Position numbers and translations under genes: made by a program. Source: Proteiniborus ethanoligenes (GTDB taxonomy: Bacteria > Bacillota > Clostridia > Tissierellales > Proteiniboraceae). Taken from it: a stretch of 64,000 nt of DNA. The stretch covers positions 1 to 64,000 of the forward strand of contig NZ_FNQE01000001.1 of the NCBI RefSeq assembly GCF_900107485.1, in the 5' to 3' direction. Positions 3,813-24,992 of this stretch are shown piece by piece. Below the pieces are notes generated by a model. That model was not told the DNA's origin, made no database searches, and saw nothing but the letters and a program-made list of their open reading frames with translations. The first letter of the stretch is position 1. Every line of letters begins with the position of its first letter.

Positions 3813-3892
3813 TTTATTTTAAAAGGCTGAGGAGTTACTGCTTTAAAAGCATAAATTAGCTATATAAATATAAAGAAAGAAGGGTGATAAGC

Positions 3893-5704: not shown

Positions 5705-5784
5705 AAAACTCTTAGGAACCAATAAACCTAATTTTCATAATCTATTAGTAATTAAATGGTTAAGAAAGTTAGGAGAGTGATAAT

Positions 5785-6775: not shown

Positions 6776-6977
6776 TGGTGGATTAATCTATATACCTAAA
6801 AAGAGCCCAAGGGTTGGTTGGGGTTATTTGAATGGCTCAAGAAAATCCTTAGAAAAAAGAAACATGAAAATATTTCAATCGTTTAAAAGTGGTATGCCTA
6901 TCAAAGAAATAGCTCAAAGCTACTATTTAAGTGAAGAAACAATTAAAAAGATCGTATATGGTAAAAAACAATTATAA
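6708..6977 (+). CDS. CD3324-type small DNA-binding protein (Mor-like)
   Basis: 89 residues from a TTG at 6708 with ACAGGAGG 10-16 bases upstream. The sequence has the pattern I associate with the clostridial CD3324 family: VLPAHLLKEVQKYIDGGLIY, a PKKS..GWG segment, then RN..IF..F..G and a C-terminal helix-turn-helix (about 62-86, MPIKEIAQSYYLSEETIKKI). This resembles the Mor phage activator fold. Probably a transcriptional regulator; target unknown. Confidence 0.7.
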   Translation: MSYKKGAEVLPAHLLKEVQKYIDGGLIYIPKKSPRVGWGYLNGSRKSLEKRNMKIFQSFKSGMPIKEIAQSYYLSEETIKKIVYGKKQL

Positions 6978-7030
6978 TTATTCTCTTCCTATGATTTTCA
7001 CATAATAAATGAGAAAATATAATTGACCGG

Positions 7031-7160
7031 TTAGAACTAAAGGAAGGGGATGATATAAGTGAAAATAGAGGTGCTTTTAGCATAAACTAAAAAATAATGG
7101 ATGCAACTGCATCCATTATTTTTTAATATAAAGATTGTGAAAATACTATTAGTTCTAGGA
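7031..7160 (+). promoter_or_regulatory. candidate attenuator leader of the GNAT gene (short leader peptide plus terminator)
   Basis: A GTG at 7059 with AAGGAAGGGG upstream starts an 8-codon peptide (MKIEVLLA) that ends at 7085. It is followed at once by a strong terminator hairpin (7089-7124). TAGAACTAA at 7032-7040 is exactly complementary to TTAGTTCTA at 7150-7158, which touches the AGGAGG of the acetyltransferase gene. This resembles leader-peptide attenuation of drug-resistance genes. Seen in sequence; function inferred. Confidence 0.4.
7089..7124 (+). terminator. terminator hairpin upstream of the GNAT gene
   Basis: A 17-bp stem AAAAAATAATGGATGCA paired with its complement across a 2-base loop, ending in a T6 run. 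It lies after the 8-codon leader and before the acetyltransferase gene, so read-through would be needed for a promoter upstream of the leader. Confidence 0.85.
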
Positions 7161-7167
7161 GGAAAAA

Positions 7168-7728
7168 ATGCTAGAAACATTTAAAATAGAAGGAGAATTA
7201 TTAAATCTTAGAGAGACCATAGATTCAGATATAGATAATTATGAGAGGTGGAACATTTCAGATTTAAAAGCATGGGAATTTGACGGTCCATGGTATGATG
7301 AGGATTTAAGTGCAGTCATTGAGAGCAGAAAGAGGTGGCTAACTGGAGAAAGAAAACCACCATATAGATTTTTAGAGATAGAAACTAAAAACTATATACA
7401 TATTGGCTGGGTAAATGTTTATCATGATACTTGTGATCCGCATATGACAGAAATAGGCATAGACATTGCCGATGACTATTATTGGGGAAAGGGAATAGGA
7501 AAAGAAGTATTAACATTGTGGATAGATTACCTTTTTAAAGAAAGAGAATTTGCAAGAATAGGATTTGGAACATGGTCAGGAAACAAAGGAATGATTAGAC
7601 TAGGAGAAAAGCTAGGCTTTCAAATGGAAGGAAGAATAAGAAAGGGCTGTAAAGTTAAAGGAATATTTTATGACAGAATAAAGATGGGAATTTTAAGAAG
7701 CGAATGGGAAGATAGATTTAATAAATAA
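7168..7728 (+). CDS. GNAT family N-acetyltransferase
   Basis: 186 residues, RimJ/RimL-like GNAT fold. Acetyl-CoA binding motif A is visible as a WGKGIGKEVL loop (about 110-120) after the beta-strand EIGIDIADDYY. The motif B region is GNKGMIRLGEKLGFQMEGR (about 147-165). It would acetylate an amine on a small molecule or protein N-terminus. The attenuator-like leader and the neighbouring methyltransferase make a resistance or detoxification role possible, but nothing shows the substrate. AGGAGG lies 5-10 bases before the ATG. Confidence 0.85.
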   Translation: MLETFKIEGELLNLRETIDSDIDNYERWNISDLKAWEFDGPWYDEDLSAVIESRKRWLTGERKPPYRFLEIETKNYIHIGWVNVYHDTCDPHMTEIGIDIADDYYWGKGIGKEVLTLWIDYLFKEREFARIGFGTWSGNKGMIRLGEKLGFQMEGRIRKGCKVKGIFYDRIKMGILRSEWEDRFNK

Positions 7729-7758
7729 AAGGAAAATTACGGAGGTTATTTAATATCA

Positions 7759-8784
7759 ATGAAAAATCAAACTATTTCAAATAAAGATATTTTTAATTGG
7801 ATAGAAACGAAATTAAAGCCAAGTTTTTGCACTTCAGAGGAGTTCATATATAATGAGATGGAATCTCAATCAGGATATTGTTTACCTATAATATACCAGC
7901 CCTTTGATGCTACAAAAAAACATCATTGGGTAGATAGGGGAGCTCTTTATGACTATTTATATTCAACAGGCGGAGAAGGAAAAAAACTTCTAGATTTTGG
8001 GCCAGGAGATGGATGGCCTTCACTGATAATCGCTCCCTATGCTAAGGAAGTAATAGGAATAGATTCATCTGAAAAGAGAGTAAAGGTATGTACAGAAAAT
8101 GCTAGGAGGATGAAGCTTGATAATACAAGATTTGTAAGTTATATATCTGGAACAAAGCTACCTTTTGAGGATAATAGCTTTGACGGTATAATGGCAGCAT
8201 CATCTATTGAGCAAACACCAGAACCTAAAAAAACAATTGAAGAGCTATACCGAGTTCTAAAGCCTGGATGTAGCATAAGAATAAATTACGAGGCTTTAAA
8301 CAGATACAAGGATGGACAAGAAAAAGATTTCTGGATAGCAGGTCTAAACGAAAACACATTCAAAATAATATTGTTTAACAGAGATTTAATTAATGAGTGT
8401 GTCATTCAATATGGCTTAACTGTTTCTATGTCAAAGGAAAAATTAATAAACATGTTATCTTTAGATAATAAAATTAATTTTAAACAGATTACGATTCCTT
8501 TTTTAGAAGAAATAAAGCCTGTTATTGTCAATTTTCAAGCTTGCAAAACAATTCATCCTTCTGGCAATACCTTAATGTCTTGGTTAAAGGAAGTTGGTTT
8601 TAATGAAGTGTCTCCAACATATAGCGGAGCTTTAGCAGCGGCAAAGCTATTTGACCAATTTACAGATGCAGATAGACCAAAAGACCTTGTTTCTGTTGAT
8701 AGGGAAATCAAAAGAGCAGTAAAAATAGTATCAGGATTAAAGGCACCACTAGATTTAGACCCTATGATAACTGCAATTAAATAA
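7759..8784 (+). CDS. class I SAM-dependent methyltransferase
   Basis: 341 residues with a Rossmann-type methyltransferase domain. Motif I is LLDFGPGDGWPS (about 77-88), the acidic ribose-binding residue lies in VIGIDSSEKR (about 99-108), and the post-motif region is LPFEDNSFDGIMAASSIEQ. The last ~150 residues are extra sequence that may set substrate choice. It follows the GNAT gene by 30 bases with its own GGAGG, so the two are probably co-transcribed. A terminator follows. Substrate unknown. Confidence 0.85.
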   Translation: MKNQTISNKDIFNWIETKLKPSFCTSEEFIYNEMESQSGYCLPIIYQPFDATKKHHWVDRGALYDYLYSTGGEGKKLLDFGPGDGWPSLIIAPYAKEVIGIDSSEKRVKVCTENARRMKLDNTRFVSYISGTKLPFEDNSFDGIMAASSIEQTPEPKKTIEELYRVLKPGCSIRINYEALNRYKDGQEKDFWIAGLNENTFKIILFNRDLINECVIQYGLTVSMSKEKLINMLSLDNKINFKQITIPFLEEIKPVIVNFQACKTIHPSGNTLMSWLKEVGFNEVSPTYSGALAAAKLFDQFTDADRPKDLVSVDREIKRAVKIVSGLKAPLDLDPMITAIK

Positions 8785-9173
8785 AGCTAAAACCATGAAA
8801 TAAAAAAGCAAGGAACAGTAAAATAGTTTCTTGCTTTTTTATACACATTAAATCCCACAAGCTAGGTATTTACTATAACAAAGGTTGATAATAAGTTCTT
8901 CTGGTCCAGAGATTTTCATATATGTACTATACCGCTGGGTGATAATGTAGTCGCAGTACAATTGCAGTAAAAATTTATAAGGATACTAGAATAGGATTGG
9001 TGTAGTGAATTCTGCGTCAATCCTTATTATTTTGGAGGGGTAAAGTATGTACGGCAAATATATCATACTCTATCCTTTTTATTTGAAAATTACATTAAAT
9101 AAGGTTACAATGAATGTAATACAAATAAGGCGATAGGAAATAAATATGAGTAGGGTTTCTAAGGGGTGAAAAA
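8785..9173. other. gene-poor stretch before the hsdR fragment
   Basis: Contains the terminator at 8803-8840. A stop-to-stop frame (about 8866-8970) could encode a residue of an older gene (NKFFWSRDFHI...) but has no start. A 29-codon ORF at 9047-9136 has GGAGGGG 7-13 bases upstream, but no recognisable product. It looks like decayed accessory DNA. Confidence 0.4.
8803..8840 (+). terminator. Rho-independent terminator after the methyltransferase gene
   Basis: Stem AAAAAAGCAAGGAAC paired with GTTTCTTGCTTTTTT (one G-T pair), 9-10 base loop, ending in T6. Confidence 0.85.
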
Positions 9174-9907
9174 ATGTTTCAAAGCAATTTTCAATTTCTA
9201 GAACAAAGATGGCCTATGCTAGCTGATTTGGGGAAATTAGCTGAAAAAAACATTTATCAGGATTCAAATACAAGCTTAATAAAATTAGGTATGTTTGCAG
9301 AGTTAATGGTTGGGAAGCAGATACAAAGATACTCAGATATTCCAATGGTACAAGGCCACAAAAGAATAAGAACTTAGCAATAGCAGAATGGCCTACAGAT
9401 TCAATTGGCTCTAGGAAAAGTGGTAGGGCTGACTATGCTTTATTTGTTGGGTTAGAGCTTGTTGCCCTTATAGAAGCTAAAAGAGGCAGCAAGGATATTT
9501 CTGCAGATATAGAAGATTGTAAGGAATATGCAAAGAAGATTAAAGAAGAACATAAAGAATATATTATTAATACATGGGGAGAGTACAAGGTTCCTTTTCT
9601 ATTTGCTACTAATGGAAGGAAATACTTAAAACAGCTAGAAGAAAAGTCAGGAATATGGTTTTTAGATTCTAGAAATTCTACAAATCATCCGAAGGCTTTG
9701 CAATCATGGTATACCCCTAGGGGACTTAAGGAGTTATTGGACAAGGATATAGAATTATCTACAAAGAGCCTTGAAGAGGAAACTTTTGAATATTTAACTG
9801 ACCCTAAGGGCCTTAATCTTCGTAAATATCAAATTAATGCTATTAAAGCAATAGAAGATGCTATGGCTGATGGGAAAGAAAATATTTTAATCTCCATGGC
9901 AACTGGG
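9174..9907 (+). pseudogene. hsdR: hsdR N-terminal fragment (type I restriction nuclease domain), broken
   Basis: The ATG at 9174 has AAGGGGTG upstream and opens with a typical HsdR N-terminus (LGKLAEKNIYQDSNTSLIKL). At about 9305 the coding sequence skips a block and shifts frame. A second frame then gives GWEADTKILRYSNGTRP, the PD-(D/E)xK nuclease region (RADYALFVGLELVALIEAKR) and the start of the motor (LRKYQINAIKAIEDAM). It breaks off at 9905-9907 right after ISMATG, the first half of Walker A, where a repeat block begins. The missing motor half lies at 22960-24992. As it stands it cannot make a functional restriction subunit. Confidence 0.85.
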
Positions 9908-10041
9908 GAACGTGTCATAATAGTGATGGGTGCAGTTTGGGTTATTAAATCAAGGGTTTCAGTAACTTTAAATAAATATATTTCGTGCATTGCTTAGAGT
10001 AATTAGGATTTAATTGTTGTAAACAGTGCATGATTAGAGAA
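9896..10041 (+). repeat. long direct repeat, copy 1 (inside hsdR Walker A)
   Basis: Shares a block with 19145-19288 and 21063-21172. The core GGGGAACGTGTCATAATAGT is identical in all three; then come ATCAAGGGTTTCAG-AACTTTA and CATT(G/A)CTTAGAGTAATTA. Copy 1 has a divergent stretch at about 9927-9948. Copies 1 and 2 also share GTGCATGA...AGAGAA at the far end. Copies 1 and 2 flank the GC-rich island. Confidence 0.85.
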
Positions 10042-10078: not shown

Positions 10079-10127
10079 ACTTGATATTTATGTTAGGTTT
10101 GTTTTTTACCTAACATAAATATCAAGT
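10079..10127. repeat. perfect 20-bp inverted repeat at the left edge of the GC-rich island
   Basis: ACTTGATATTTATGTTAGGT (10079-10098) pairs perfectly with 10108-10127 across a 9-base, T-rich loop. It lies between the repeat block and the first GC-rich minus-strand gene. It could be a bidirectional terminator, or a hairpin left by a mobile-element end. Confidence 0.8.
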
Positions 10128-10158
10128 AGCACTGGTCTATAATGATTCTCCCATGTTT

Positions 10159-10521
10159 TTAATTAATTTTTTTGCCGCAGGTTCCACAAAAGCGAGTACC
10201 CAGAATAACCCTGTTTCCACATTTAGAGCAAAAATTGATTTGTGAAGTAGTCTGAAGCGTGGTGGGTAAATTCTCATCTGTACTGGAGACTGTCAGAAAC
10301 AGCCAGTCGATGTCCTTACCATCCTCGCATAAACCGATGGCTCCGGCGGGCGATACCACATAAAAGCTGTCCTCGTCGATGGGATCTTCATTGTCGCTTG
10401 TCTCGGCAAGCACCAGCAAGTCTTTTACCTCGTAGCTATCATTGGAAGTGGCAAAACGGAAGCTTTTGCATCGTGTTACGGCACATTCCGCTGCCTCCAG
10501 CAATGTATTGAATTGTTCCAT
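10159..10521 (-). CDS. small zinc-ribbon protein of unknown function
   Basis: 120 residues from the ATG at 10521, which has AAGGAGGTAG about 8 bases upstream on the minus strand (a longer reading into the neighbour is not needed). The body is acidic with no membrane helix. The C-terminus is a zinc ribbon, CSKCG...CGTCGKK, with four Cys. Last gene of the island's minus-strand series, 19 bases after the preceding gene. The sister gene upstream also carries zinc ribbons, so they may act together. Family not recognised. Confidence 0.65.
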   Translation of the reverse strand: MEQFNTLLEAAECAVTRCKSFRFATSNDSYEVKDLLVLAETSDNEDPIDEDSFYVVSPAGAIGLCEDGKDIDWLFLTVSSTDENLPTTLQTTSQINFCSKCGNRVILGTRFCGTCGKKIN

Positions 10522-10540
10522 TGGAAATCTACCTCCTTCT

Positions 10541-11782
10541 TTATTTAAATAACAAATTATTGCATCTCTTGCAGCGATCATTCTGTATAGGATTCATCAT
10601 AGAACACACGTTGCAGTAGATGATGCGATCTTTCGATTTATCATATTTCTCATATGTACCGAACTTCGGATGAAAACGCACCTTGTCGCCTATATCCAGA
10701 TAGTCGTACATATGCCTGTTACTGTCCTTTTCCACGATGGTCTTTTTCTTGCCTGCATCGGTGTTGATGATCGTGTTATATTCCGTATAGGTTCGCCAGT
10801 TGTCGTCCTTGCCGCCCCTATGCTCGCTTTTCTCCTTGCTGTACTTATTGACGACCACGCCCTCCCACATGGGCTGATTGGTTTTTCGCAACGTCAGCAG
10901 ATTAACGACCAGCATGACAAGAGAAATGCCAACACCGATGACAAGGGATTCTCCAAACGGGAAATCGTCCATCAGCAGACCGGCGACGGGAAAGCCGATG
11001 AGCGGCACGAAAAACAATATCCACATACAGCCAATAGAGGATTTCTTGTTTTTTTGTGCGGCGGCCAGTATTTCCGGCGAATTACACCTGTCGGAAAAGC
11101 CGACCAGTCCCGCGTCGCCCTGTGAGGGATCGGAAGATGCCGCTTGGCTTACCTCCATTGGCTCCGGCGTTCTCAAATTCACCGCCTTGCCGCAGCCGGT
11201 GCAAAATTCAGCGCCTTCCGGTAGCTTGTCTCCGCAGTTATAACAAAACATATCCGTATCACTCCTTGCTTCGATTATTTGAGGCGCGACGGGTTTCCTC
11301 GCCGCTAGTTTCTTCTTTTTCCCGCCTCTGGCTGTGCGTATGACAATTAGCAGCAAAAGCAGGTAACCGATGGGAGCGAGGATATGGTAAATGATCGCCA
11401 CCTCGCCCATCTCATCAAATTCGCACAACGCGGAGGGCTTGTTGACGTATGGGAAAAGGCCAAGGTAGCGGATGCGCTCGGAGCGCGTTTCGCCCTCGGT
11501 AAGGCTTGGCCACGCCTCGTCGCTTTGGTACATCACATAGCCCCGATACTCCTTGCCACTTACCACAAACCAATAGCCCTTGGAAATGGTCTGGGAGCGA
11601 TTTTCCTGTGCGGTCGTATCGTCCCGACGGCTGTCATAGCTGTCCACCGTACCCATTACGCTGTCGCCCCATATCGCCAGAGCCAGCGTAGATAGGCTCA
11701 AATACATGGCAAACAGCAGCACGGCGTAAATCAGGATGAGGATGGGCAGGGGGATGTTTTTGCTCTTTTTCTTCTTTGACAT
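10541..11782 (-). CDS. multi-pass membrane protein with two zinc ribbons
   Basis: 413 residues from the ATG at 11782, preceded by AAAGGAGCG. Order: Lys-rich start, membrane helix about 11-33, a DUF3592-like beta domain about 34-125, helix about 131-148, zinc ribbon C180-x2-C183...C194-x2-C197, two more helices around 255-300, a second beta domain, and a C-terminal zinc finger C390-x2-C393...C404-x2-C407. It probably sits in the membrane with zinc ribbons in the cytosol. Function unknown. GC-rich codons mark it as foreign to the surrounding genome. Confidence 0.65.
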   Translation of the reverse strand: MSKKKKSKNIPLPILILIYAVLLFAMYLSLSTLALAIWGDSVMGTVDSYDSRRDDTTAQENRSQTISKGYWFVVSGKEYRGYVMYQSDEAWPSLTEGETRSERIRYLGLFPYVNKPSALCEFDEMGEVAIIYHILAPIGYLLLLLIVIRTARGGKKKKLAARKPVAPQIIEARSDTDMFCYNCGDKLPEGAEFCTGCGKAVNLRTPEPMEVSQAASSDPSQGDAGLVGFSDRCNSPEILAAAQKNKKSSIGCMWILFFVPLIGFPVAGLLMDDFPFGESLVIGVGISLVMLVVNLLTLRKTNQPMWEGVVVNKYSKEKSEHRGGKDDNWRTYTEYNTIINTDAGKKKTIVEKDSNRHMYDYLDIGDKVRFHPKFGTYEKYDKSKDRIIYCNVCSMMNPIQNDRCKRCNNLLFK

Positions 11783-11795
11783 CTCAACGCTCCTT

Positions 11796-12200
11796 TCATT
11801 GTTGTTCGCAATCCCGCTTTTCGCGCCAGCCCACGCCGACCAAATACAGGACGGTCGATAGGAAAAGCGGCGGTAACGTGATCGTGGCATAGGAGCGAAG
11901 CGAATATACCAGCAACACTCCCGCCACCAGTTGGATATAGCCAAGCGTCCGGCACCAGCGATGTCGGTGGAGCCGCTCTGCAAAGGCCAGGCCCGCGATG
12001 GCCGTCACCATAGAAAAGATGTACGCTATTCCAGCCGCGAAGCAACCCGCTCCGGCGTAGGTGTAGTCCAGTGCCGCATTGTCAATAAGACCCAGGCACC
12101 ACAGCAGCATGGGTAGGGCGGCAAGTAACATCAGTACGGATGAAATCCGCAGAAGTATTCGTTTTCGCGGGCTATTATTTGATATGCCATTCATACTCAT
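11796..12200 (-). CDS. small four-helix membrane protein
   Basis: About 134 residues with four hydrophobic segments and a basic start. The start is uncertain: ATG at 12200 or 12194, or a TTG at 12212. None has a good ribosome site, and all lie inside the 3' end of the preceding lipoprotein gene (which ends at 12175), so translation is probably by coupling. It ends 13 bases before the zinc-ribbon membrane gene. No family recognised. Confidence 0.55.
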   Translation of the reverse strand: MSMNGISNNSPRKRILLRISSVLMLLAALPMLLWCLGLIDNAALDYTYAGAGCFAAGIAYIFSMVTAIAGLAFAERLHRHRWCRTLGYIQLVAGVLLVYSLRSYATITLPPLFLSTVLYLVGVGWREKRDCEQQ

Positions 12201-14313
12201 AAGCTGTTGCAATTATTTGATTACCACCGGTAAACCCGACCACAATATATACCTTATCGCCATCGGCTGACCCTGCGGGCATCGTGCCGCCAACCGTGAC
12301 TCGCATACCCGTGTAGCCGGTGTTGGTATCGTTTTTTTCGGTCCAAATATATGATTTTGTGTGCTTTTCAGTAATATCATAAAGAGATGTGTCCGTACCG
12401 TATGAGACAAAGGGATCGTCATGGTTGATAGGCGTAATAGCGGCCCCCAAAGACGCCCCAAGATGGAAGCAAATGTTGCTTGATGTGTTTGCCTTGATAC
12501 TCAAATCCAAGGTAACCGGCTCTCCTCCCGAATACCGTCCATTTGGGCTGCTTGCGGTTCCTATATTCTCAACAAATTCGCCCTTGCAATTATCGTGGGT
12601 GCTACCGGAGTAACTGTAATCAAATGTTGTTTTGCATCGATATGTGTAGCTTCCGCTGCCACCACTCCATGATTCTGAATAGGAATCGTCAGCTGCGCTT
12701 GTTTCATACTTGTTATCAAAGCTTCTGACAAGCAGCCAATACCCCTCAGTCACCGCTCCCGCCTTTTTAAGATAACCTTGTTCGCGCATCCAGTCATAAA
12801 ATTTGGTTCTGTCCTTACCGTAGCCCAGCCACATGGCTATTGCCATACTCAAATTATCTTCACGGTTTTTTTCACTTCCGAAAACGGATATATCCTCGCC
12901 TACCATTTTCAAAATGACTTGTCGAATGGTAAATAGCGACTTCAACCTCTGCTCAATAGTCATGTCATATTTATATCCGTTTTCAAGGCGGTTGAGCAGG
13001 TTGGCATCCTTAAAGCTCCCAATGATCTTCTCATATTCCGTAGCCTTGGCTTCAATCAGATTCTCATTTGCCAGCCTTTTGTCGAATTGTTCCTTTAGAT
13101 CGGCTTCCACATAGTCTTCCAGCATTTTGATTTCAGCATTAGTCAGGCTGTCTTTTCCGTGAAGTCTGCGCCAGGCTTCCTTCTTTTCGCTTAAAAGGCG
13201 GTTGTAATACCCACGCATCTGGATTTTAAGCGTTTCCCAGTCACCGGAGTTAAGCGTATATCCGTAAGCGCCTTCCTTTGCAAGCCCTGCATACGACTTG
13301 TAAGCACATTCCATCTCATAATCTTTCCACGCCATAATACCTTGCTCTACCGCTGCCTTGCTTAAATCTCCTATGGATTTAATCGCAGTCACTGCGCCGC
13401 CAGCAGCACCGCCAAACAGGGTAACGCCTAAATCGGTGAACTCCACCACAGCTGTTTTATAATCCCCATTATAAAGAGCCTCTGCGCCTTCGGTGAGTGT
13501 GCCCAATTTGCCTAAGCCCTCCATTAGGCTCTCTTTAACCAAAGGATTTTCTTGAACCATATCAACTGTGGCTTCGGCAAGAATCTTTCCACATTCATAG
13601 GTTAATGCCTCTATATCACCTTTTGCCGCAAGCTCTTGCGTTGTCGGAATAATGTTCATCTCCAAAGCACGGTCAATAATAATTTCTCGTGTTTCACCGG
13701 CATAAAGCCCAACTCCATCAAAATAATCATTGCACACTGCTTTTATCTTTTCGATATAAGTTGGATCTTTCACTTCGTTGCTGACAGAATCCACCGCCAT
13801 TTTGTGAGCGTAAAGCTTGATTTGTTCTTCTCTGTTCATCAACTTGCCACTGTATGATGAAAAATGCCATGTTTCAAATTCCAAATATCCCTCGGACAGG
13901 CGAACAGGGTCGGGGATAATCGGCTCCCATTCGCTGCCGTTCCAATATGCCATGACCATTCGGTCAAAGCTCTCGGCATCGGGGATGTTTTTCTTATCAA
14001 GCTTCATGGTGATTTTCACCGGCCGGTTCAGCCGCACCTGTTCCATGCCCTCAACGCTGATATCGATGGGAGTAGTGAGCAAAGCGTCTTCACTCTCGGA
14101 GGCTTTCGCCACGATGACACTTACATCCCCGTCAAAAGCTCCAGCAGGAACCGATACTATCCAGCCGTCCTTTTTCAGATTCCCGATTTCTGCTCCTTTG
14201 TCCGAAGCAATTTTGGTTGAGGCAAAATTACTTTTTCCACATCCTACAAGGCCTGCTATAGCGGACAGCAGCATGACGGCTACAAGCAGAATAGATAATA
14301 TTTTTCGTTTCAT
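12175..14313 (-). CDS. large lipoprotein with ZU5-like N-terminal domain
   Basis: 712 residues. The signal peptide ends in a lipobox GLVGC with lipidated Cys25, so it is anchored outside the membrane. The next ~100 residues (GWIVSVPAGAFDGDVSVIVA onward) resemble a ZU5-type beta domain. A mainly helical middle (about 150-500) contains a hydrophobic Gly/Ala stretch (GGAAGGAVTAIKSIGDLSKA). A Ser/Tyr-rich beta domain lies at the C-terminus. AAAGGAGC precedes the ATG. Function unknown; the layout suggests an exported multi-domain surface protein. Confidence 0.7.
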   Translation of the reverse strand: MKRKILSILLVAVMLLSAIAGLVGCGKSNFASTKIASDKGAEIGNLKKDGWIVSVPAGAFDGDVSVIVAKASESEDALLTTPIDISVEGMEQVRLNRPVKITMKLDKKNIPDAESFDRMVMAYWNGSEWEPIIPDPVRLSEGYLEFETWHFSSYSGKLMNREEQIKLYAHKMAVDSVSNEVKDPTYIEKIKAVCNDYFDGVGLYAGETREIIIDRALEMNIIPTTQELAAKGDIEALTYECGKILAEATVDMVQENPLVKESLMEGLGKLGTLTEGAEALYNGDYKTAVVEFTDLGVTLFGGAAGGAVTAIKSIGDLSKAAVEQGIMAWKDYEMECAYKSYAGLAKEGAYGYTLNSGDWETLKIQMRGYYNRLLSEKKEAWRRLHGKDSLTNAEIKMLEDYVEADLKEQFDKRLANENLIEAKATEYEKIIGSFKDANLLNRLENGYKYDMTIEQRLKSLFTIRQVILKMVGEDISVFGSEKNREDNLSMAIAMWLGYGKDRTKFYDWMREQGYLKKAGAVTEGYWLLVRSFDNKYETSAADDSYSESWSGGSGSYTYRCKTTFDYSYSGSTHDNCKGEFVENIGTASSPNGRYSGGEPVTLDLSIKANTSSNICFHLGASLGAAITPINHDDPFVSYGTDTSLYDITEKHTKSYIWTEKNDTNTGYTGMRVTVGGTMPAGSADGDKVYIVVGFTGGNQIIATAYEYEWHIK

Positions 14314-14337
14314 TGCGCAAAGCTCCTTTCTGTCGGC

Positions 14338-14928
14338 TTACTCAACCGCAAAGCTGAACCTCAAATCCGGCGCGACGTTGACAAAGCCGGAGTAATAGTG
14401 CATGGTGACCTCGCTTTTGTCGGTCTGCCGCTGATAGACCATCCAGCCGCTGGTGGATTCGCCAGGGGCAAGCTCTATGTCCTTCATATACCGCTGGTTC
14501 CTGTCGGCCACATCCGACATCACCTGTGAATTTTCTTCCGAGGTCATGTCGCTGTCGTCCCCGGTGGGCCCTTCCTCGTAGATAATATAGATATCCTTCT
14601 TGTTCGGGGAATCTATCGGTTCGCCGGAGACATTTGTGAAGGTAAACCAGACCTTCACATATTCAAATCCGTCCTTCGGCCTTGAAAGCATACCTGTATA
14701 ATCGAAAGGCTCCGCCACGTCAATAGTGATGGAAATCCCGTTTGCCTCGGCTGCTTCTCCGATACCGTAATACCTGTTTTCATCCGCTCCCGCCTCGCCG
14801 GAGGGAGCATTGCCTGATTCGGCGGGTGGGGGGCTTTCGGGCGTTGATTTACCGCCGTTTTTTTCACCGCAAGCAGCTAAGGTGAACATAAGTACCAATG
14901 ATAAAAATATAATTTATTTCTTTTTCAT
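14338..14928 (-). pseudogene. lipoprotein gene with a stop at codon 5 (DUF4352-like Ig domain)
   Basis: From the ATG at 14928 (GAGGAGG upstream) the frame reads MKKK, then TAA at 14916-14914, then IIFLSLVLMFTLAAC in the same frame. That is a complete lipoprotein signal peptide interrupted by one nonsense codon. After Cys20 come a Ser/Pro/Gly-rich linker and a beta domain resembling DUF4352 extracellular domains (WFTFTNVSGEPI, ELAPGESTSGWMVY). Re-initiation at the TTG at 14898 would lack the charged n-region. Either a recent null mutation or a base error. Confidence 0.75.
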
Positions 14929-14978
14929 AAGAGAAGCCTCCTCTTAAAATCATTTGACATGACGGTGTGAGCCTTGCC

Positions 14979-16613
14979 CTAATCAATTTTGGTGCCTTTT
15001 ATATAGGTCGTCGCCGTACCTTTTCCAACGGCAAGTATGGTGCCCGAAATACTTATTCTGCCATTTTCGGAAGAAAACACAAGCGTCTGTGTTATATAAT
15101 CGCCATCATCAAATGTATGAGTATAGGTTGAAGTACCAGTTATAGGATCGTAGTCCATAGCACCGCCATTGAGAACAAGCTGACCATTTTCATTTTTGCT
15201 GTAAACATTTTGGATTTCTTCCGTATCCCCATCATCATTCGATAGTACAATATCATACGTCCCCACGATCTCATCTATGGAAAGCCCACCGATTGCCTCG
15301 GCCGGTGGAGCGGTAGATTCCTCGGTCGGTTCTTCGGCAGGAGGCGTTTCCATGGGTTCTTCCTCGGAATCCAAGAACATCTCGTAGAGCAGATTTCGCA
15401 GATTTTCTATGACCTCGTTCAGCTCTTCTTCGGTGTAATAGTATTCTTCCTCTATTTCCTCTGCCAGCTCTGCGGCGGTCTTAGGCTCTCCTTCCTCCGG
15501 CACGGGCAGACCCACTTCCTTTAATTCCTTTGCCACCTCATCGGGGGTTTTTCCTTCTGTGCTGATCTCGGTCATGGTTACGGTGGTCTCGCCATCATCG
15601 CCCACGGTAATCGTGCCGCCAAGTATCTTTCCCTCGCTGACTAAATCTAGTACGCTCTCCCCGATATAGTTGAGCTTATCCAAAGATCCCATCTGTTTTG
15701 AAAACTCCGCACCGGCCTTTATTCCTGCCTTGATTGAGTCTCCGCTGAACACGTTGACCCCTCCGGCGATGGATGCGATGGGGCCCACAATATCCTTGAG
15801 GTCGTTGGCTGCCATTGTCACTTTGTTGTTTTCGCCAAGGATGATGGTGCTGCCGGTGGAAGCGATGTCCACTATGGTATCAACGCCACTGATGACCATG
15901 CCTCCTGCCTCTAAAATGCCCGTGGCTGTACCTCCACTGGCGATGACGCCACCAATATATAGTCCTGTTTTACAAGCGGTCTTTGTCGCCATCGCCGCAT
16001 TTTCGTACTTCTGAATTGTATCGGCTTCATCGTTATAAGCCGCACCTTCTAAAATAGCCTGCGCCATTTTAAGCTGGGCAAAGGCATTTTTTGCATCGGT
16101 TCCAAGGTTTTCCGAAAGCTGCTTGACCTTTTGCCCCGCGGGGTAGGAGTCGTATTTTTCGGTCAGCTCCTTTGCCCATTTTACAGCGGCGTTTTCCTCA
16201 GCTGCGTAGGCCACCATAGTAAATAGCCCAATCCTCGCAGGGCTTGATGATGTATAGAACATGGTTGCCGCCTGCGTAGACGCGGAGCTGCGCAGACTTT
16301 GAGCATAATCTGCCAATTCCGCTGCTTGGACACTGGCCAGCTCACAGAGCCGCCATGCCTCCAGCGTGTCGTCAGTCATGGCTTTCAGCTCGTCAATACT
16401 GCCGTTTTCAATGTCATACTCAATCAGCACCTCAGTTTTGAGCCGGGCGATGATGTACTGCTGAGTCGCTATCGCGCCCGCCTGTTCCACGGCGGCGCGT
16501 TCTGCGGCTACTGCGGGAAGGGATACCGTGGTGTTTTCATCTGTTCTACCGCCGCAGCTTGCAAGGGTGAAAATCATAATAAGCGCCAGAAATAAAGACA
16601 CATACTTTTTCAT
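14979..16613 (-). CDS. lipoprotein with glycine-rich hydrophobic core
   Basis: 544 residues. The lipobox TLASC puts lipidation at Cys20. A helical region (about 35-190) is followed by a long Gly/Ala/Ile-rich hydrophobic section (about 205-290) that looks able to insert into a membrane, an acidic Glu-rich linker and a Pro/Glu stretch (about 370-430), and a beta-rich C-terminal domain (about 435-544) with a YDIVLSNDD strand. The hydrophobic middle recalls pore-forming or polymorphic-toxin domains, but that is only a resemblance. Same strand and style as the 712-residue lipoprotein downstream. Confidence 0.7.
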   Translation of the reverse strand: MKKYVSLFLALIMIFTLASCGGRTDENTTVSLPAVAAERAAVEQAGAIATQQYIIARLKTEVLIEYDIENGSIDELKAMTDDTLEAWRLCELASVQAAELADYAQSLRSSASTQAATMFYTSSSPARIGLFTMVAYAAEENAAVKWAKELTEKYDSYPAGQKVKQLSENLGTDAKNAFAQLKMAQAILEGAAYNDEADTIQKYENAAMATKTACKTGLYIGGVIASGGTATGILEAGGMVISGVDTIVDIASTGSTIILGENNKVTMAANDLKDIVGPIASIAGGVNVFSGDSIKAGIKAGAEFSKQMGSLDKLNYIGESVLDLVSEGKILGGTITVGDDGETTVTMTEISTEGKTPDEVAKELKEVGLPVPEEGEPKTAAELAEEIEEEYYYTEEELNEVIENLRNLLYEMFLDSEEEPMETPPAEEPTEESTAPPAEAIGGLSIDEIVGTYDIVLSNDDGDTEEIQNVYSKNENGQLVLNGGAMDYDPITGTSTYTHTFDDGDYITQTLVFSSENGRISISGTILAVGKGTATTYIKGTKID

Positions 16614-16649
16614 TGCATTACCTCCAATGTTTATATTTTGCTTCTTGTG

Positions 16650-17159
16650 TTACCATCCGGTGATGTCTGCCGTTACGCCAGTTTCATGAAGCAGCTTTTG
16701 AGCGGCATCCAGCAGCGCCTGCTTTTGAGTCATTCCGTGCAGCAACTCTACCCGCATGGTCTGGGCCGCGTCGCCAAAGGTCAGGTACATCCGTTCCTGA
16801 TCAATATGGGCGGTGTGCAGCCGCACGCCATGTACCCCATCGAGACCCCACCGGTAAATTTCACTGCCGATGAGGATACCAAAGGTAGATATCACGGTTT
16901 CCACGGTGTCCTTTTTCATTTGGCGGCCCGGCATGGAGACGAGAGCAGATGGCACCGCAAGGATGCGATTATCCCAAATGAGTGTTGCGTCATAGAGCAG
17001 ACGGCTCTGCCTCACCAATAACAGGAGAGAGATAAGGCTGATAGCTCCAAAGGCGAAAACCACTTCTAACACGAATGCCATACCGAGCCACACCGCCAAA
17101 CAAATACTGGCTGCGAACAATAAGGCATATCCATTGCGTCGTTTTCGGATTAATTTCAT
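16650..17159 (-). CDS. two-helix membrane protein with PH-like cytosolic domain
   Basis: 169 residues. Basic N-terminus, two adjacent membrane helices (about 12-48), then a soluble beta-rich domain (IWDNRILAVPSALVSM...GSEIYRWGLDGV) resembling bacterial PH/DUF304-type domains. It precedes the 544-residue lipoprotein gene by 36 bases. Function unknown. An in-frame start further upstream is not supported. Confidence 0.6.
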   Translation of the reverse strand: MKLIRKRRNGYALLFAASICLAVWLGMAFVLEVVFAFGAISLISLLLLVRQSRLLYDATLIWDNRILAVPSALVSMPGRQMKKDTVETVISTFGILIGSEIYRWGLDGVHGVRLHTAHIDQERMYLTFGDAAQTMRVELLHGMTQKQALLDAAQKLLHETGVTADITGW

Positions 17160-17233
17160 TTACACCATACCTCCTATAATATAGATTTTAAGGAAAAAAT
17201 CTTTAAAAAGCATCGTTCGAAAGGATGAATTTG

Positions 17234-17269
17234 CAGAAAAAAGCCTCTCATACTAAAGTATGAGAGGCT
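17234..17269 (-). terminator. terminator of the luxR-type gene (minus strand)
   Basis: Perfect 12-bp stem (17242-17253 with 17258-17269; arm AGCCTCTCATAC) with a TAAA loop. Read on the minus strand it is followed by a T-run (17241 downward). It separates the regulator gene from the lipoprotein genes, so those need their own promoter or read-through. Confidence 0.9.
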
Positions 17270-17301
17270 AGTTAAACCCTGTATTTATATGATTTTATGA
17301 A

Positions 17302-18705
17302 TTATCCAACCCTTTGATTCTTCAGCAGGGTGCTGATGAGTTCTGCCCGACTACCGACATCATATTTTGAAAAAATGTTCCTTACATGTGTTTTTACAGT
17401 ACTCTCACTGATGAACAAAGCCCCGGCAATCTCACGGTTGGATTTGCCGGAAAGGATGAGCTGCAATACCTCCTCCTCCCGAACTGTCAGTGGGTAAAGA
17501 GTTTTAATTTGACGAACAATGTCCGTTTGCTTTGGCTGACTCATATTGCCATAGGTGGCAAGGTAGGCATGGCTTTTCAGCAGTAAAACAAGCTGGTAGT
17601 TTAACGGTGGCAGAATGACCAGTGTAACACAAACCACAGTAAGGGCAATCACCGCAACCTCTGCACTTGGAAGTCCAATGGATGTTACGGCCATTCCCAA
17701 GACGCCTCCACAAAGCACGCCGAATACATTTACGGAAAGCCCAATGCCAAAGGTTTGTGCCGGGTTGTCGCTATAATCCAGCATTTCTCCAAGGATGCTC
17801 CACCAAAACAGATCAAAAATACCGCAAGCACTGAGCATCAGCGTATCCACAATCAGATAGCTGAAAGTGTTTCGCCCTAATAGAATAAAGTTGATGAACG
17901 CTCCTATAATCATTGCCATTCCGATATACAAAATTCTGGAACGCTTTGCTTTCATAGGTAGGTTGCGCATAATAGCAAGCGCCACAATATAAGGCACGGC
18001 CCAATACCAGCTTACCAGTCCCGTTAAATGCTCAAAAGTAGGGTTGATGACATGATACATCAATCCGGAATTAATTGTGATGATAAAGACAAAAATACAT
18101 AGCAATAATAGTGGGTTTTTAATGCCACCAATCGTCTTGTTTTTAAATGTTTTGTTCTGCTCATTCTCCTGCTCCACCGGCAGTACCCAAATGAAGACCA
18201 TACCGATCATAAGGCAAAGCATAGTAAGGCTTAGACCGATAAAGGTTGACCTGTTCATGGCAACTACGTTGACTGCAATCATCAACAGATTAGAATAAAT
18301 CAGAAAGTCGGCGCAGGATTTAATGCGCCTGTTTTTGGGAGTAAAGGCTCTAAGGAAAAATCCCCATGCTGCCACTGCGCAGCCGCTAAAGTATCCGCTG
18401 ACAATCAGTCCACCCAACCATAGAGCGGGGAGATGAAAAAAGAATGGGATAGTGGTGGCTAAGCATAAGCCCATGCCACCGAGCATCATGGTTTTGGCGG
18501 TCACCTGAGACTTGACAAACAAACCGCAGGTGAAAAGCCCTGCAAAATGTGCGATCATGGTAGTCAATATGGCGTTTGCCTCATGCAAATCCAGCAGGCT
18601 ATACAGCACCTGACCCTCAAATAGGAAAGAGAGCAGATAGGCAAAAGAAAACGAAAATGCCGCAACAGAGAGTCTCCGGGAATTTAACAATTTATGTCTG
18701 TTCAT
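17302..18705 (-). CDS. LuxR-family regulator with a 12-helix membrane sensor
   Basis: 467 residues. Residues 1-~385 form about twelve hydrophobic helices arranged like an MFS transporter. Residues about 406-467 are a LuxR/GerE helix-turn-helix (LTVREEEVLQLILSGKSNRE, then TVKTHVRNIFSKYDV). This membrane-tethered type is known from Eggerthellaceae and some Clostridia and is thought to sense a ligand through the membrane part. The start overlaps the stop of the 34-codon stub upstream (ATGA). It is the only regulator in the island and probably controls the lipoprotein genes. Confidence 0.9.
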   Translation of the reverse strand: MNRHKLLNSRRLSVAAFSFSFAYLLSFLFEGQVLYSLLDLHEANAILTTMIAHFAGLFTCGLFVKSQVTAKTMMLGGMGLCLATTIPFFFHLPALWLGGLIVSGYFSGCAVAAWGFFLRAFTPKNRRIKSCADFLIYSNLLMIAVNVVAMNRSTFIGLSLTMLCLMIGMVFIWVLPVEQENEQNKTFKNKTIGGIKNPLLLLCIFVFIITINSGLMYHVINPTFEHLTGLVSWYWAVPYIVALAIMRNLPMKAKRSRILYIGMAMIIGAFINFILLGRNTFSYLIVDTLMLSACGIFDLFWWSILGEMLDYSDNPAQTFGIGLSVNVFGVLCGGVLGMAVTSIGLPSAEVAVIALTVVCVTLVILPPLNYQLVLLLKSHAYLATYGNMSQPKQTDIVRQIKTLYPLTVREEEVLQLILSGKSNREIAGALFISESTVKTHVRNIFSKYDVGSRAELISTLLKNQRVG

Positions 18706-18806
18706 TTTATAACCTCCCGCTCATCGGAGGCTCCGCCTTTTTTAACCCATTCGTCTATATCAGCAGTTTTGAAACGCCAGGGCTTTCCCACCTTGGATGC
18801 AGACAT
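18702..18806 (-). CDS. truncated excisionase-type helix-turn-helix peptide
   Basis: 34 residues from the ATG at 18806 with GAGGTGG 7-13 bases upstream. The sequence SASKVGKPWRFKTADIDEWV matches the C-terminal half of excisionase/HTH_17 proteins (usually P-A-x-K-x-G-x-x-W-R-F). The N-terminal recognition helix is missing. Its TGA overlaps the ATG of the LuxR-type gene, so it may survive as a translated leader. It marks the island edge. Confidence 0.55.
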   Translation of the reverse strand: MSASKVGKPWRFKTADIDEWVKKGGASDEREVIK

Positions 18807-18882
18807 AGAAGCCACCTCATTTTAGTAAATTCGAACAAATATCCTAATTGATTGTTATTAAATAATTACAATAGCACAATAA

Positions 18883-19144: not shown

Positions 19145-19288
19145 ATGGCAACTGGGGAACGTGTCATAATAGTGACAGGGTGCATAAATGCTTTAAGATC
19201 AAGGGTTTCAGGAACTTTAGTTAATATGATTCATGCATTGCTTAGAGTAATTAAGGTATAATTGTTGTAAGAAGTGCATGAGAAGAGA
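19145..19288 (+). repeat. long direct repeat, copy 2
   Basis: Same block as copy 1, also entered through ATGGCAACTGGGGAACG. It continues through ATCAAGGGTTTCAGGAACTTTA and GCATTGCTTAGAGTAATTA to GTGCATGAGAAGAGAA. With copy 1 it brackets the GC-rich island. The entry point reads ...DFTIDMATG in frame, again like the first half of a helicase Walker A motif. Confidence 0.85.
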
Positions 19289-19359
19289 ATAATAGTTATG
19301 TATAAGCAAATAAATGTTGTAATATGAATCAACCGGTCATATCCAAAGGGGAGGAAAGT

Positions 19360-21062: not shown

Positions 21063-21172
21063 ATGCTACAGGGGAACGTGTCATAATAGTGACAGGGCGC
21101 ATAAATGCTTTAGTATCAAGGGTTTCAGGAACTTTAAACAGATATATTTCGCGCATTACTTAGAGTAATTAG
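21063..21172 (+). repeat. long direct repeat, copy 3
   Basis: Shares GGGGAACGTGTCATAATAGT, GCATAAATGCTTTA, TCAAGGGTTTCAGGAACTTT and CTTAGAGTAATTAG with copies 1 and 2. Entry is through CATGCTACAGGGG (HATG in frame). The same frame stays open through the block in all three copies (ERVIIV..G.....SRVS.TL). Confidence 0.85.
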
Positions 21173-21247
21173 TATAAAATTAAAGGAATGTATATAATAA
21201 CCGATATATATAGTAAATATACTTAAGTTTGAGGATCATTGTGCAAA

Positions 21248-22191: not shown

Positions 22192-22959
22192 TTGAAAAAC
22201 GGACTATATTAAAAGTTAATAGATATAGAAGCACGGAAAAAGATAATAGACAAGTCTCTTTCACAAATGACCAGTGAGAAAGAAAAAATAGAGTTTGTAG
22301 AAAAACTTAATAAAACTATTCACCGGCAAGACAGGGCCAACACTTGAAAGTGAATTGAGTAGAGAGATTAGAACAGTTTATGGGGCTGATTTTCTAATAT
22401 CATTTATTAAGTTTAGTGGTCTTAGACTTATTTATGATGATTTAGTTGAGTTTACAAAAACAAATAAGCTTAGGGTAATTACAACTTCATATATGGGAGC
22501 ATCAGACTATAAAGCAATACTTAAGTTATTAGAGTTACCAAATACCGAAGTGAAGATTTCTTATGATACAAAGAGGACTAGATTACATGCAAAAGCATAT
22601 TATTTTAAAAGAAATACAGGTTTTCTTACAGCATATATAGGATCTTCAAATCTTTCTAATCCTGCACTATCTAATGGACTTGAGTGGAACCTTAAAGTAT
22701 CAGAATATACATCTAAGGATGTAGTAGACAGCTTTAAGAAGACATTTGAAAGTTATTGGAATGATGAAGAATTTAGAAACTTTAAGCCAATAGATGAAGA
22801 TAATAGAAAAGAGCTAAAGGAATCTTTAAGCAGTAAAGTAAAAGATGATAGTACTTATATATTTTTAATCTGACTCCCTATTCCCATCAGAAAGAAATCC
22901 TAGAGAATCTTAGAGTAAAAAGAGAAGAGTATGAATCATATAAGAACCTAGTTGTAGCA
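22192..22959 (+). pseudogene. remnant of a PLD-domain DEAD/DEAH helicase (DUF3427 type), 5' part
   Basis: AAGGAG then TTG at 22192 gives MKNGLY, then TAA where Glu would be expected, then KLIDIEARKK in frame. A frame change near 22320 leads into TGKTGPTLESELSREIRTVY and a PLD-like nuclease domain (22355-22860) with RLHAKAYYF...AYIGSSNLS (H-x-K and GSSN). A further one-base shift in a T5 run near 22864 leads to TPYSHQKEILENLRVKREE, the usual linker of this helicase family. The family identity changes at Walker A (22960-22980), where HsdR sequence takes over. The gene is broken by at least one stop and two frameshifts. Confidence 0.75.
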
Positions 22960-24992
22960 GCCACAGGAACGGGGAAAACTAGAACAATATTAGGTTTAGC
23001 ATATAGACTTGTAAAGACTAATAGATTTAAGAGGATATTATTTTTAGTAGATAGATCAGCCTTAGGAAATCAAACTGAGGACACATTTACAGATACAATT
23101 ATTGAAGATTTACAAACATTCAATGAAATATATGATATTAAAGGTCTTGATGAAAAATCCCCAGAACTTACTACTAAACTTCATATTGCGACTGTACAGG
23201 GGATGGTGAAAAGAATTATGTTTTCAGAAGATGAAATTCTACCTGTAGATAATTATGATTGCATTATAGTTGATGAAGCCCATAGGGGTTATCTATTGGA
23301 TAAAGAAATGGGAGAAGTTGAATTAGAGTTTAGAAATCAAGATGACTATGTAAGTAAATATAGAAATGTAATAGAATATTTTGATGCTGTGAAAATTGCT
23401 CTTACGGCTACACCTGCTTTGCATACTACAGCTATTTTTGGAAAGCCTGTATTTGATTATTCCTATAGAGAAGCTGTAATTGATGGGTATTTAGTTGATC
23501 ATGGCCCACCTCTACAAGTCGTAACAGAATTAAGCAAGGAAGGAATCAATTATAAAGCCGGAGATGTAGTTCCAATGTATGATCCTGTTACTAATGAGAT
23601 TATAAATAGTGAAGAGTTGCCTGATGATTTAAACATAGAAATAGACTATTTTAATAAAAAGGTTTTAAATGAAAATTTCAATAGAGTAGCTTTAGATCAA
23701 ATTTTAGACCATATTTCTCCAATAGGAAAAGAAAAAACTTTAATATTTGCTGCTACAGATAATCATGCAGATATAGTTGTTAGATTAATTAAGGAGATAT
23801 ATGAAGATAAAGGCATTGAGATTGAAGATGATGCTGTAATGAAGATAACAGGTTCAATAAAAGACCCATTATTAGCTATAAAGAGGTTTAAGAATGAAGA
23901 AAATCCAACTATTGTAGTTACAGTTGATTTGTTGACAACAGGAGTTGATGTACCTGAGATATGTAATTTAGTTTTTTTAAGAAGAGTAAAATCAAGAATA
24001 CTTTATGAGCAGATGCTAGGAAGAGCCACAAGGTTATGTGATGATATAGAAAAAACTCATTTTAATATATTTGATGCTGTTAGATTATATGAAGGATTAG
24101 AAAAAGTTACTAATATGAAGCCAATAGTTACAAGAAATAGTGTAAAGTTTAAAGAATTAATTCATGAGCTGTTTCAATTAGATACTGAGGAGAAAAAGAA
24201 AAACCATATAGATGAAATTATTGCTAAATTTCATAGAAATAAAAGGAAACTTAAAGGTAAAAGATTAGAAGAGTTTAAATCACATACAAATGGAAAAACA
24301 CCTGATGAATTTATTAATGATTTGAGAAATAGAAACATAAAGGAAATGGTAGAACAAATAGAAAAAAACAAAGAAATATTTAACTATTTAGATGAATATG
24401 AGTATAATCCGAGAAAGATTATTATATCAACTCATGAAGATAAGGTATTAGAAACTTTCACTGGTTATGGAAAGGCTAAAAAGCCAGAGGATTATTTAGA
24501 GGAATTTGGTAGATTTGTTAATGAAAATATCAACAAGATACCAGCATTACAAATTGTATGTCAAAGGCCTCAGGAACTTACTAGGGCAGAATTAAAATCT
24601 TTAATTCAAGAATTATATAAACATGGCTTTTCAGAAATAAACCTAAACACAGCATACAATCAAATGACAGATGCCGATATAACAGCCGATATTATTAGCT
24701 TTATAAGACAGCAGGCAATAGGTAGTACTTTAATAGACCATGAAGAAAGAATAAGAAATGCTATGAAAAAAGTAAAAGGACTTCAAAAATGGAACAAAGT
24801 ACAAACTCAATGGCTAGATAGAATTGAAAAACAGTTATTAAAGGAATCTATAATTGCTAAAGAATCCTTTGACACAGGAGCTTTTAAACTAGTGGAGGTT
24901 TTGAAAGAATCAATAAACATTTTGGAGGTAAGTTAGAAGAACTAATCAAAACCATAAATGAAAACTTATACGATGAAAGGGGAACGGCATAG
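22960..24992 (+). pseudogene. hsdR: hsdR motor half (type I restriction subunit R, EcoEI-like)
   Basis: From Walker A ATGTGKT (22960-22980) the sequence is clearly HsdR: TRTILGLAYRLVKTNRFKR, DEAH-type box VDEAHRGYLLD, ALTATPALHT, YSYREAVIDGYLVDH, LLTTGVDVPEI, GRATRLCDD. ATP-driven DNA translocation motifs are present, but the N-terminal nuclease lies 13 kb away at 9174-9907. A one-base loss in an A-run near 24887 cuts the frame at 24936; the other frame restores the normal end (FERINKHFGGKLEELIKTIN...) and stops at 24992, four bases before hsdM. An internal start (GTG at 23203) would lack Walker A. Confidence 0.85.

What the first reader, a model, noticed from the sequence alone, without database searches (positions are those of the whole stretch)
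10130..18835. GC-rich lipoprotein island of foreign origin with no integrase
Eight minus-strand genes (zinc-ribbon membrane proteins, three lipoproteins, PH-like membrane protein, LuxR sensor, excisionase stub) sit in sharply GC-richer DNA. The set is not a system I recognise. Exported lipoproteins with hydrophobic cores plus cytosolic zinc ribbons and a membrane-tethered regulator look like one surface or envelope-stress or toxin-like system.
Basis: partly seen in the sequence, partly recalled or inferred. Interest (0 to 1): 0.65.

Follow-up and report, generated by a model that had tools for sequence, protein, structure and literature searches.

The report
Swappable self-cleaving surface lipoprotein locus
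A GC-rich block of foreign DNA in a clostridial genome carries a recurrent gene set that seems to place exchangeable surface lipoproteins, one predicted to cut itself, under a membrane-bound switch, and it sits among leftovers of mobile elements that broke a restriction gene.

Summary
In detail: 10130-18835 is 48% GC in 32% GC DNA, with eight minus-strand genes and a truncated HTH stub. The set is a real recurrent unit: multi-TM LuxR, ph169, exchangeable exported proteins, zinc-ribbon membrane proteins. ph169 matches 21 of 398 Bacillota and 23 of 391 same-class genomes (own included); LuxR lies upstream in 29 of 37 loci scanned. This genome has three clusters, its two held congeners none. The 712-aa lipoprotein starts with a predicted ZU5/GAIN/FIIND-type domain (Z 12.5 to ankyrin ZU5) ending in H-[FL]-S, the known self-cleavage motif, in 20 of 20 rows reaching the site (three partial hits lack it). 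Its helical core and C-terminal domain are exchanged independently between lineages. Best reading: a modular surface-protein expression locus with a predicted self-cleaving lipoprotein; toxin and defence roles lack support. The island lies between two of three left ends of a Tn1806-like ICE family inside a broken hsdR, which can explain transfer and the missing integrase; elsewhere such ends interrupt R-M-type genes at the glycine loop (8 of 8 other genomes with long matches). Cleavage, ligand and function are untested; parts of this copy are damaged.

The parts
17302..18705 (-). luxR467: multi-TM N-terminus plus C-terminal GerE HTH; putative one-component membrane regulator
   Evidence: GerE E 4.3e-19, MFS_1 E 3.9e-4 below cut-off; hydropathy; upstream of ph169 in 29 of 37 loci
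18711..18806 (-). Stub of a small HTH (excisionase-like) gene, N-terminal part missing
   Evidence: 93.5% over 31 residues to L055 gene, 84% to L059; HTH_17 in L055
16650..17159 (-). ph169: 169-aa protein with N-terminal membrane segment, no Pfam family; most conserved partner of luxR
14979..16613 (-). lp544: lipoprotein; helical part plus a C-terminal domain shared with L027 and L013
   Evidence: Full-length relative in L070, C-terminal domain in L027 and L013
14338..14928 (-). DUF4352 lipoprotein, stop at codon 5 (damaged)
   Evidence: PF11611 E 6.2e-7; frames
12175..14313 (-). lp712: lipoprotein; ZU5-like domain about 31-162 with H150-F151-S152, helical core about 163-520, C-terminal domain about 521-712
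11796..12212 (-). mem138: small membrane protein overlapping the end of lp712; in some relatives
10541..11782 (-). znr413: four hydrophobic segments and zinc ribbons
   Evidence: Zn_Ribbon_1 E 9.7e-6; hydropathy
10159..10581 (-). znr140: soluble zinc-ribbon protein
   Evidence: Zn_Ribbon_1 E 1.6e-5
9398..9904 (+). 5' part of a broken hsdR, up to the P-loop codons
   Evidence: HSDR_N E 3.3e-8 on 9398-9994; frames
9905..10041 (+). ICE left end, copy 1, starting right after the hsdR P-loop codons
19154..19289 (+). ICE left end, copy 2
21071..21181 (+). ICE left end, copy 3
22355..24936 (+). PLD-type 5' part, then (in another frame) a P-loop running into the 3' part of hsdR
   Evidence: PLDc_2 E 5e-10, EcoEI_R_C E 1.1e-30; frames
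10079..10127 (.). Perfect 20-bp hairpin at the left edge of the island

Best explanation
The island is one copy of a recurrent, laterally spread surface-protein expression locus of Bacillota. SHOWN: a frame of multi-TM LuxR, ph169 and zinc-ribbon membrane proteins recurs with changing exported cargo; lp712 is mosaic, its core and its C-terminal domain being exchanged independently; the copy is accessory, GC-deviant, and lies between two left ends of a serine-recombinase ICE family in a broken hsdR. STRONGLY INFERRED: lp712 is a lipid-anchored exported protein whose first domain has the ZU5/GAIN/FIIND fold with H-F-S at its end. INFERRED: the domain cuts itself between F151 and S152; the lipid-bearing part holds the remaining 560 residues without a covalent bond, so they can be released by force, contact or unfolding. 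The LuxR senses a cue at the membrane and turns the operon on; ph169 and the zinc-ribbon proteins help hold or monitor the exported proteins. Exposure to phages, competitors or predators would favour exchange of the outer modules. The exact task (binding, adhesion, shielding) is unknown.
For: Conserved order and changing cargo. Mosaic lp712. ZU5-type fold. Motif in 20 of 20 rows reaching the site; of 114 columns in 17 non-redundant rows only H, S and one Y are invariant. HF/S and SF/S cleavage in PIDD, Nup98, CARD8, NLRP1: PMC3210808 passages. Bacterial ZU5 autopeptidases: PMC3482391 passages. Multi-TM LuxR activators: PMC9734109 passages. Accessory DNA. ICE ends.
Against: No cleavage, ligand or expression data. 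The model is poor outside the first domain (pLDDT 59.6 overall). Three related proteins (L025, L062, L116) lack the motif. H-F-S can be kept for structural reasons alone. lp712 itself is rare (6 of 391 genomes, five of them only partial matches). The HTH gene and one lipoprotein are damaged here. In 8 of 37 loci no LuxR is close upstream.
Confidence: 0.55

Rival explanations
1. Polymorphic toxin or contact-competition locus: lp712 and lp544 are surface-anchored effectors released by ZU5 cleavage, their helical cores act on membranes of neighbours, and the small membrane and zinc-ribbon proteins give immunity.
For: ZU5 autopeptidases occur in bacterial polymorphic toxins (PMC3482391 passages); an RHS-repeat protein stands in the same frame in L065; module exchange; weak Diphtheria_T hit on L025, E 0.034.
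Against: The tip is the shared part, not a variable toxin: C-terminal domain 60-94% between classes A and B, and it occurs in a FecR-domain protein (L029). No toxin or immunity family. Core fold unmatched.
Confidence: 0.15
2. Anti-phage or superinfection-exclusion locus carried in a defence region.
For: Sits in a broken type I R-M locus; L008 has phage genes and an AAA_13 gene upstream; exchange of exposed modules.
Against: PADLOC gives only a weak KwaB hit to lp712 (E 0.0035) and HTH-level CARF3 hits to the LuxR; other clusters lie beside ordinary genes by ORF listing; the R-M setting follows from the ICE target.
Confidence: 0.08
3. Decaying passenger: the copy in this genome came with mobile DNA and is no longer used, whatever the family does elsewhere.
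For: Truncated HTH gene, stop in the DUF4352 lipoprotein, no ICE right end in the window, scrambled hsdR.
Against: Seven of eight genes are open; lp712 is 97% identical to L006, which suggests recent arrival; two more clusters in the genome.
Confidence: 0.3

Closest known systems
ZU5/FIIND/GAIN autoproteolytic domains (PIDD, CARD8, NLRP1, adhesion GPCRs) and bacterial ZU5 autopeptidases of Zhang et al. 2012 (PMC3482391)
   Same: Predicted fold (Z 12.5 to 9.7) and H-[FL]-S at the domain end
   Different: Directly behind a lipid anchor or a zinc-ribbon/TM anchor, in a LuxR-ph169 locus; cleavage not shown
10-12-TM LuxR regulators of Eggerthella (DadR, HcdR, CadR; PMC9734109)
   Same: Multi-TM N-terminus and C-terminal LuxR HTH, next to the presumed target genes
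   Different: Presumed targets are exported proteins, not metabolic enzymes; ph169 is the constant partner here
Polymorphic toxin systems
   Same: ZU5 use and module exchange; one cluster has an RHS protein
   Different: No variable toxin tip and no immunity family recognised
Tn1806-like ICEs with triple serine integrases (PMC12942858, PMC4701971), for the flanks
   Same: Split hsdM or other R-M and helicase genes; GGG at both junctions; serine-recombinase-like gene at the right end in the two relatives with both ends
   Different: Only left ends remain in the window; triple integrases not checked in the relatives; several gene kinds hit at the glycine loop

Membership tests
ZU5/GAIN/FIIND superfamily (lp712 first domain) | ZU5-type beta sandwich | tested here: met
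   Z 12.5, rmsd 2.8, 122 aligned to 3f59_D; CD97 10.5, NLRP1 10.0, CARD8 9.8, BAI3 9.7; predicted model only; no Pfam hit
ZU5/GAIN/FIIND superfamily (lp712 first domain) | H-[FL]-S or similar at the last strand turn | tested here: met
   20 of 20 rows reaching the site; three partial hits lack it
ZU5/GAIN/FIIND superfamily (lp712 first domain) | Self-cleavage | not testable with these tools
   Needs expression and an S152A control
10-12-TM LuxR regulators | C-terminal GerE HTH | tested here: met
   E 4.3e-19
10-12-TM LuxR regulators | 10-12 N-terminal TM helices | tested here: inconclusive
   Hydropathy shows many segments that merge; no TM predictor or model run
10-12-TM LuxR regulators | Ligand-dependent activation of the neighbouring gene | not testable with these tools
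   -
Polymorphic toxin system | Variable C-terminal toxin domain | tested here: not met
   C-terminal domain shared (60-94% between classes) while the core varies
Polymorphic toxin system | Immunity gene | tested here: inconclusive
   No immunity family hit for window proteins; unknown membrane proteins present
Known anti-phage system | PADLOC model match | tested here: inconclusive
   Only KwaB E 0.0035 on lp712 and CARF3 HTH hits on the LuxR
Tn1806-like serine-integrase ICE (window remnant) | Target R-M gene split at the element end | tested here: met
   hsdR 5' part ends at copy 1
Tn1806-like serine-integrase ICE (window remnant) | Serine integrases and right end present | tested here: not met
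   Right-end motif absent; no recombinase recognised among the ORFs; so a remnant only

The most novel reading that the evidence does not exclude
A bacterial counterpart of adhesion GPCRs or NLRP1: a lipid-anchored receptor-like protein that cuts itself at H-F|S, stays assembled, and lets its large C-terminal part go on contact or pulling; lineages exchange the outer modules by recombination, and a membrane LuxR couples display to a cue.
Probability: 0.2. Interest if true: 0.75.

Novelty: new variant of a known kind. Interest (0 to 1): 0.5.

Why it matters
It outlines a recurrent, uncharacterised locus type of Bacillota that pairs a membrane LuxR with exchangeable exported proteins, and gives a one-residue test of whether GAIN/FIIND-style self-cleavage works in bacterial lipoproteins. 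It also ties such cargo to ICE ends that, where both gene and end could be read, hit the nucleotide- or SAM-binding loop of R-M-type genes, a way in which foreign surface loci could arrive while disabling restriction.

Tried and rejected
Self-mobility of the island: no integrase inside; the 'excisionase' is a truncated HTH gene that stands before luxR in L055 and L059; DNA likeness to relatives ends at different places. Phage cargo: L008 and L014 have phage-like genes beside the operon, but lp712 has no match in viral contigs, phages or plasmids, and for the LuxR the two pattern matches in viral contigs were not confirmed; not kept as a general vehicle.

Pore-forming core: the core alone has no Foldseek match below E 0.13; XaxB (0.97) and ClyA (1.6) are at noise level; best Z 5.6 to phenylalanine ammonia lyase. 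Undecided. lp544 was not modelled (only one admissible sequence, jobs used).

RNA reading of the flanking repeat: it folds better than shuffles (z -3.3 and -3.2) but has no Rfam match near a gathering score; dropped once identified as an ICE end.

Literature: searches returned nothing; 77 and 78 led to the ZU5 papers; 58 to the LuxR paper; 116, 118 and 123 to the ICE papers. No paper on this cluster was seen in these searches. The seven papers cited by PMC number were seen as passages only; the other titles as search listings.
Full report
1. Observation. 10130-18835 has 47.9% GC against 32.2% for window 1-9000 plus 20001-64000, with sharp edges; GC3 of the eight genes is 44-64% against 18.5-23.9% for four other window genes. 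All eight genes are on the minus strand; a ninth, an HTH gene, is cut at the right edge. Damage: that stub, and an in-frame stop at codon 5 of the DUF4352 lipoprotein. The two held congeners run from the gene at window 5785-6393 straight to ychF (27836-28927): all of 6402-27834 is missing there, with about 110 bp in its place in G002 and about 940 bp (one other small gene) in G001. So the island and its R-M surroundings are accessory DNA.

2. A recurrent unit. With lp712, 13 loci came from genome contigs. In 391 genomes of the class 6 match, own included; the other five match only in part. Viral contigs, phages and plasmids gave none. The order in these loci is the window's: luxR, ph169, (lp544), DUF4352 lipoprotein, lp712, (mem138), zinc-ribbon proteins, as far as the contigs reach. 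With ph169, 21 of 398 Bacillota genomes and 23 of 391 genomes of the class match at E 0.001, own included in both; identity falls to 24% in the weakest. I fetched wider stretches for part of these hits (5 regions, 16 in 49, 17 in 92). Of 38 loci scanned, ph169 is recognised in 37; in 29 of 37 a LuxR lies upstream on the same strand with at most two genes between. Of the other eight, three (L061, L066, L118) have under 1 kb of contig upstream, L070 has a LuxR about 10 kb away, L115 one downstream, and L058, L062 and L063 none in sight. A zinc-ribbon protein matching the znrC profile follows on the same strand in 16 of 37; many contigs end early. Most of these loci were found through ph169, so the count shows what goes with ph169, and no random-neighbour control was run. 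This genome has three clusters (LuxR 100, 69 and 47%), its two congeners none at E 1e-60. The second cluster is also GC-richer (40% against 31%), the third is not (34 and 34%).

3. The cargo changes. In the same frame stand ZU5 lipoproteins of several classes; ZU5 bodies on a zinc-ribbon/TM anchor (L070, L107); SLH proteins with Big_2, CBM_X2 or Calx-beta domains (L059, L068, L113); an RHS-repeat protein (L065, E 2.4e-79); a protein with an amine-oxidase-N1 domain (L122); one with MucBP (L115). L062 and L116 have lipoproteins with an HExxH stretch (seen; L062 had no Pfam hit, L116 was not scanned). Many other cargo proteins have no Pfam family.

4. lp712 is mosaic. Eight proteins (window, L006-L009 as class A; L011-L013 as class B) were compared: between the classes the signal peptide is 46-88% alike, the ZU5 domain 32-35%, the first core part 20-22%, the second 38-47%, the C-terminal domain 60-94%. 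DNA shows the joints: L008 against L013 39-53% through the core, then 81 and 93-99%; L014 against L013 95-100% through the core, then 58-74%. Genes around it do not follow: L012 has LuxR 87% and ph169 88% but lp712 42%; L007 has ph169 59% but lp712 77%; L014 has znr413 78% but lp712 38% (all to the window); the znr genes of L008 and L014 are 75-91% alike.

5. The first domain. The AlphaFold2 model of lp712 (8 sequences) is poor overall (pLDDT 59.6) and fair at 31-162 (10-residue means 61-87). That part matches ankyrin ZU5 (Z 12.5, rmsd 2.8, 122 aligned), CD97 (10.5), NLRP1 (10.0), CARD8 (9.8) and BAI3 (9.7); Foldseek gives nine matches at E 0.001 or better, all ankyrin complexes. The last strands are 143-150 and 153-158 with F151-S152 between them. 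H-[FL]-S stands in 20 of 20 rows that reach the site (three of them from cut or broken ORFs: L010, L014, L114); three more hits (L025, L062, L116) do not align there and lack it. In 17 non-redundant rows, of 114 columns only H, S and one Y are invariant. PIDD and Nup98 cut at HF/S, CARD8 and NLRP1 at SF/S with the serine needed (PMC3210808, passages). ZU5 autopeptidases were described in bacterial polymorphic toxins and other surface proteins (PMC3482391, passages). Self-cleavage is thus a well-founded prediction, not a result.

6. Core and C-terminal domain. The core alone (11 sequences, pLDDT 66.7) is all helix and has no match. The C-terminal domain also occurs at residues 30-220 of a protein with a FecR domain (L029) and in L070, which speaks for a general extracellular module.

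7. The regulator. GerE E 4.3e-19 behind a multi-TM region. 10-12-TM LuxRs of Eggerthella activate enzyme genes on specific substrates (PMC9734109, passages). The same wiring for exported proteins is inferred.

8. How it came here. A repeat of about 135 nt flanks the island (9905-10041, 19154-19289); a third copy is at 21071-21181; no further copy was found in the genome. Copy 1 starts right after the P-loop codons of an hsdR 5' part (HSDR_N E 3.3e-8). In 381 genomes of the class 16 match, own included; eight others have long matches (over 100 nt), seven only 23-48 nt. In each of the eight at least one copy starts right after a glycine-loop codon of an R-M-type gene: HsdR in G192, G285 and G283, HsdM in G266, Mod in G119 (Pfam above cut-off for these five), a PLD-type gene in G149 and an MTES_1575-type gene in G088 (below cut-off), and in G172 a like of the latter (by eye). 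Unclear are one of three copies in G192 (another is probable) and copies 2 and 3 of the window, where only a few codons remain. Behind the left end G285 has VirD4 and VirB4 of the CD1115 and CD1110 families and G283 a like gene order. In G192 and G119 a serine-recombinase-like ORF (XisF model E 6e-24 and 7e-22, below its cut-off) is followed by CCCTTGACACGANAGG and the 3' part of the same split gene. Tn1806-like ICEs of Streptococcus have triple serine integrases, split hsdM, snf2 or methylase genes, and TGGG-GGGA/T junctions (PMC12942858 and PMC4701971, passages); here the left junction reads TGGG in 5 of 11 copies and AGGG in 6, the right AGGGA or AGGGT in two. So the window holds three left ends of a Tn1806-like family and the island lies between the first two. 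No right end was found (7 loose matches, 7.9 expected by chance; none exact). The hsdR 3' part is now preceded by a PLD-type 5' part, in another frame, with the join near the P-loop; recombination between ends in two R-M genes would give this (inference). The glycine-loop rule was not stated in the passages I saw; searches are the basis, so it may be in print. Whether the island came in with an ICE or was added later is open.

9. Verdict. The unit is real, foreign and recurrent. A modular surface-protein locus with a predicted self-cleaving lipoprotein is the best reading; its parts are known kinds, and the combination was not seen in searches.

Noticed in passing
Window 9905-10041, 19154-19289, 21071-21181; L136+L137, L138-L144: Left ends of a Tn1806-like ICE family; in 8 of 8 other genomes with long matches at least one copy starts right after a glycine-loop (P-loop or SAM-motif) codon of an R-M-type gene.
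   Followed up: partly
Window 22355-24936: PLD-type 5' part followed, in another frame, by a P-loop and the 3' part of hsdR: a scrambled R-M gene whose join lies near the ICE target site.
   Followed up: partly
Window 6402-27834 against L075 and L076: Accessory hot spot between a DUF3298-like gene (name recalled) and ychF; empty in both held congeners.
   Followed up: yes
L143 1687-13404: An element of the same family split a Mod gene and carries a tetracycline-resistance ribosomal protection gene (NF012153, above cut-off) and a recombinase-like gene lying in two ORFs.
   Followed up: partly
L057 8194-14670; L067 1645-11943: Two further LuxR-ph169 clusters of the same genome with other large exported proteins (1120, 907 and 997 aa) without recognised domains.
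   Followed up: partly
L062 1-1592; L116 7377-9287: Lipoproteins after ph169 with an HExxH stretch, perhaps surface metalloproteases as cargo.
   Followed up: no
L065 13984-17388: RHS-repeat protein near the LuxR-ph169-zinc-ribbon genes.
   Followed up: no
L010: Class A lp712 on a 3.8-kb contig of a MAG titled Bacteroidales; misbinning is likelier than transfer between phyla.
   Followed up: no
Window 10079-10127: Perfect 20-bp hairpin at the left edge of the island (z -8.9); function unknown, perhaps a terminator.
   Followed up: no
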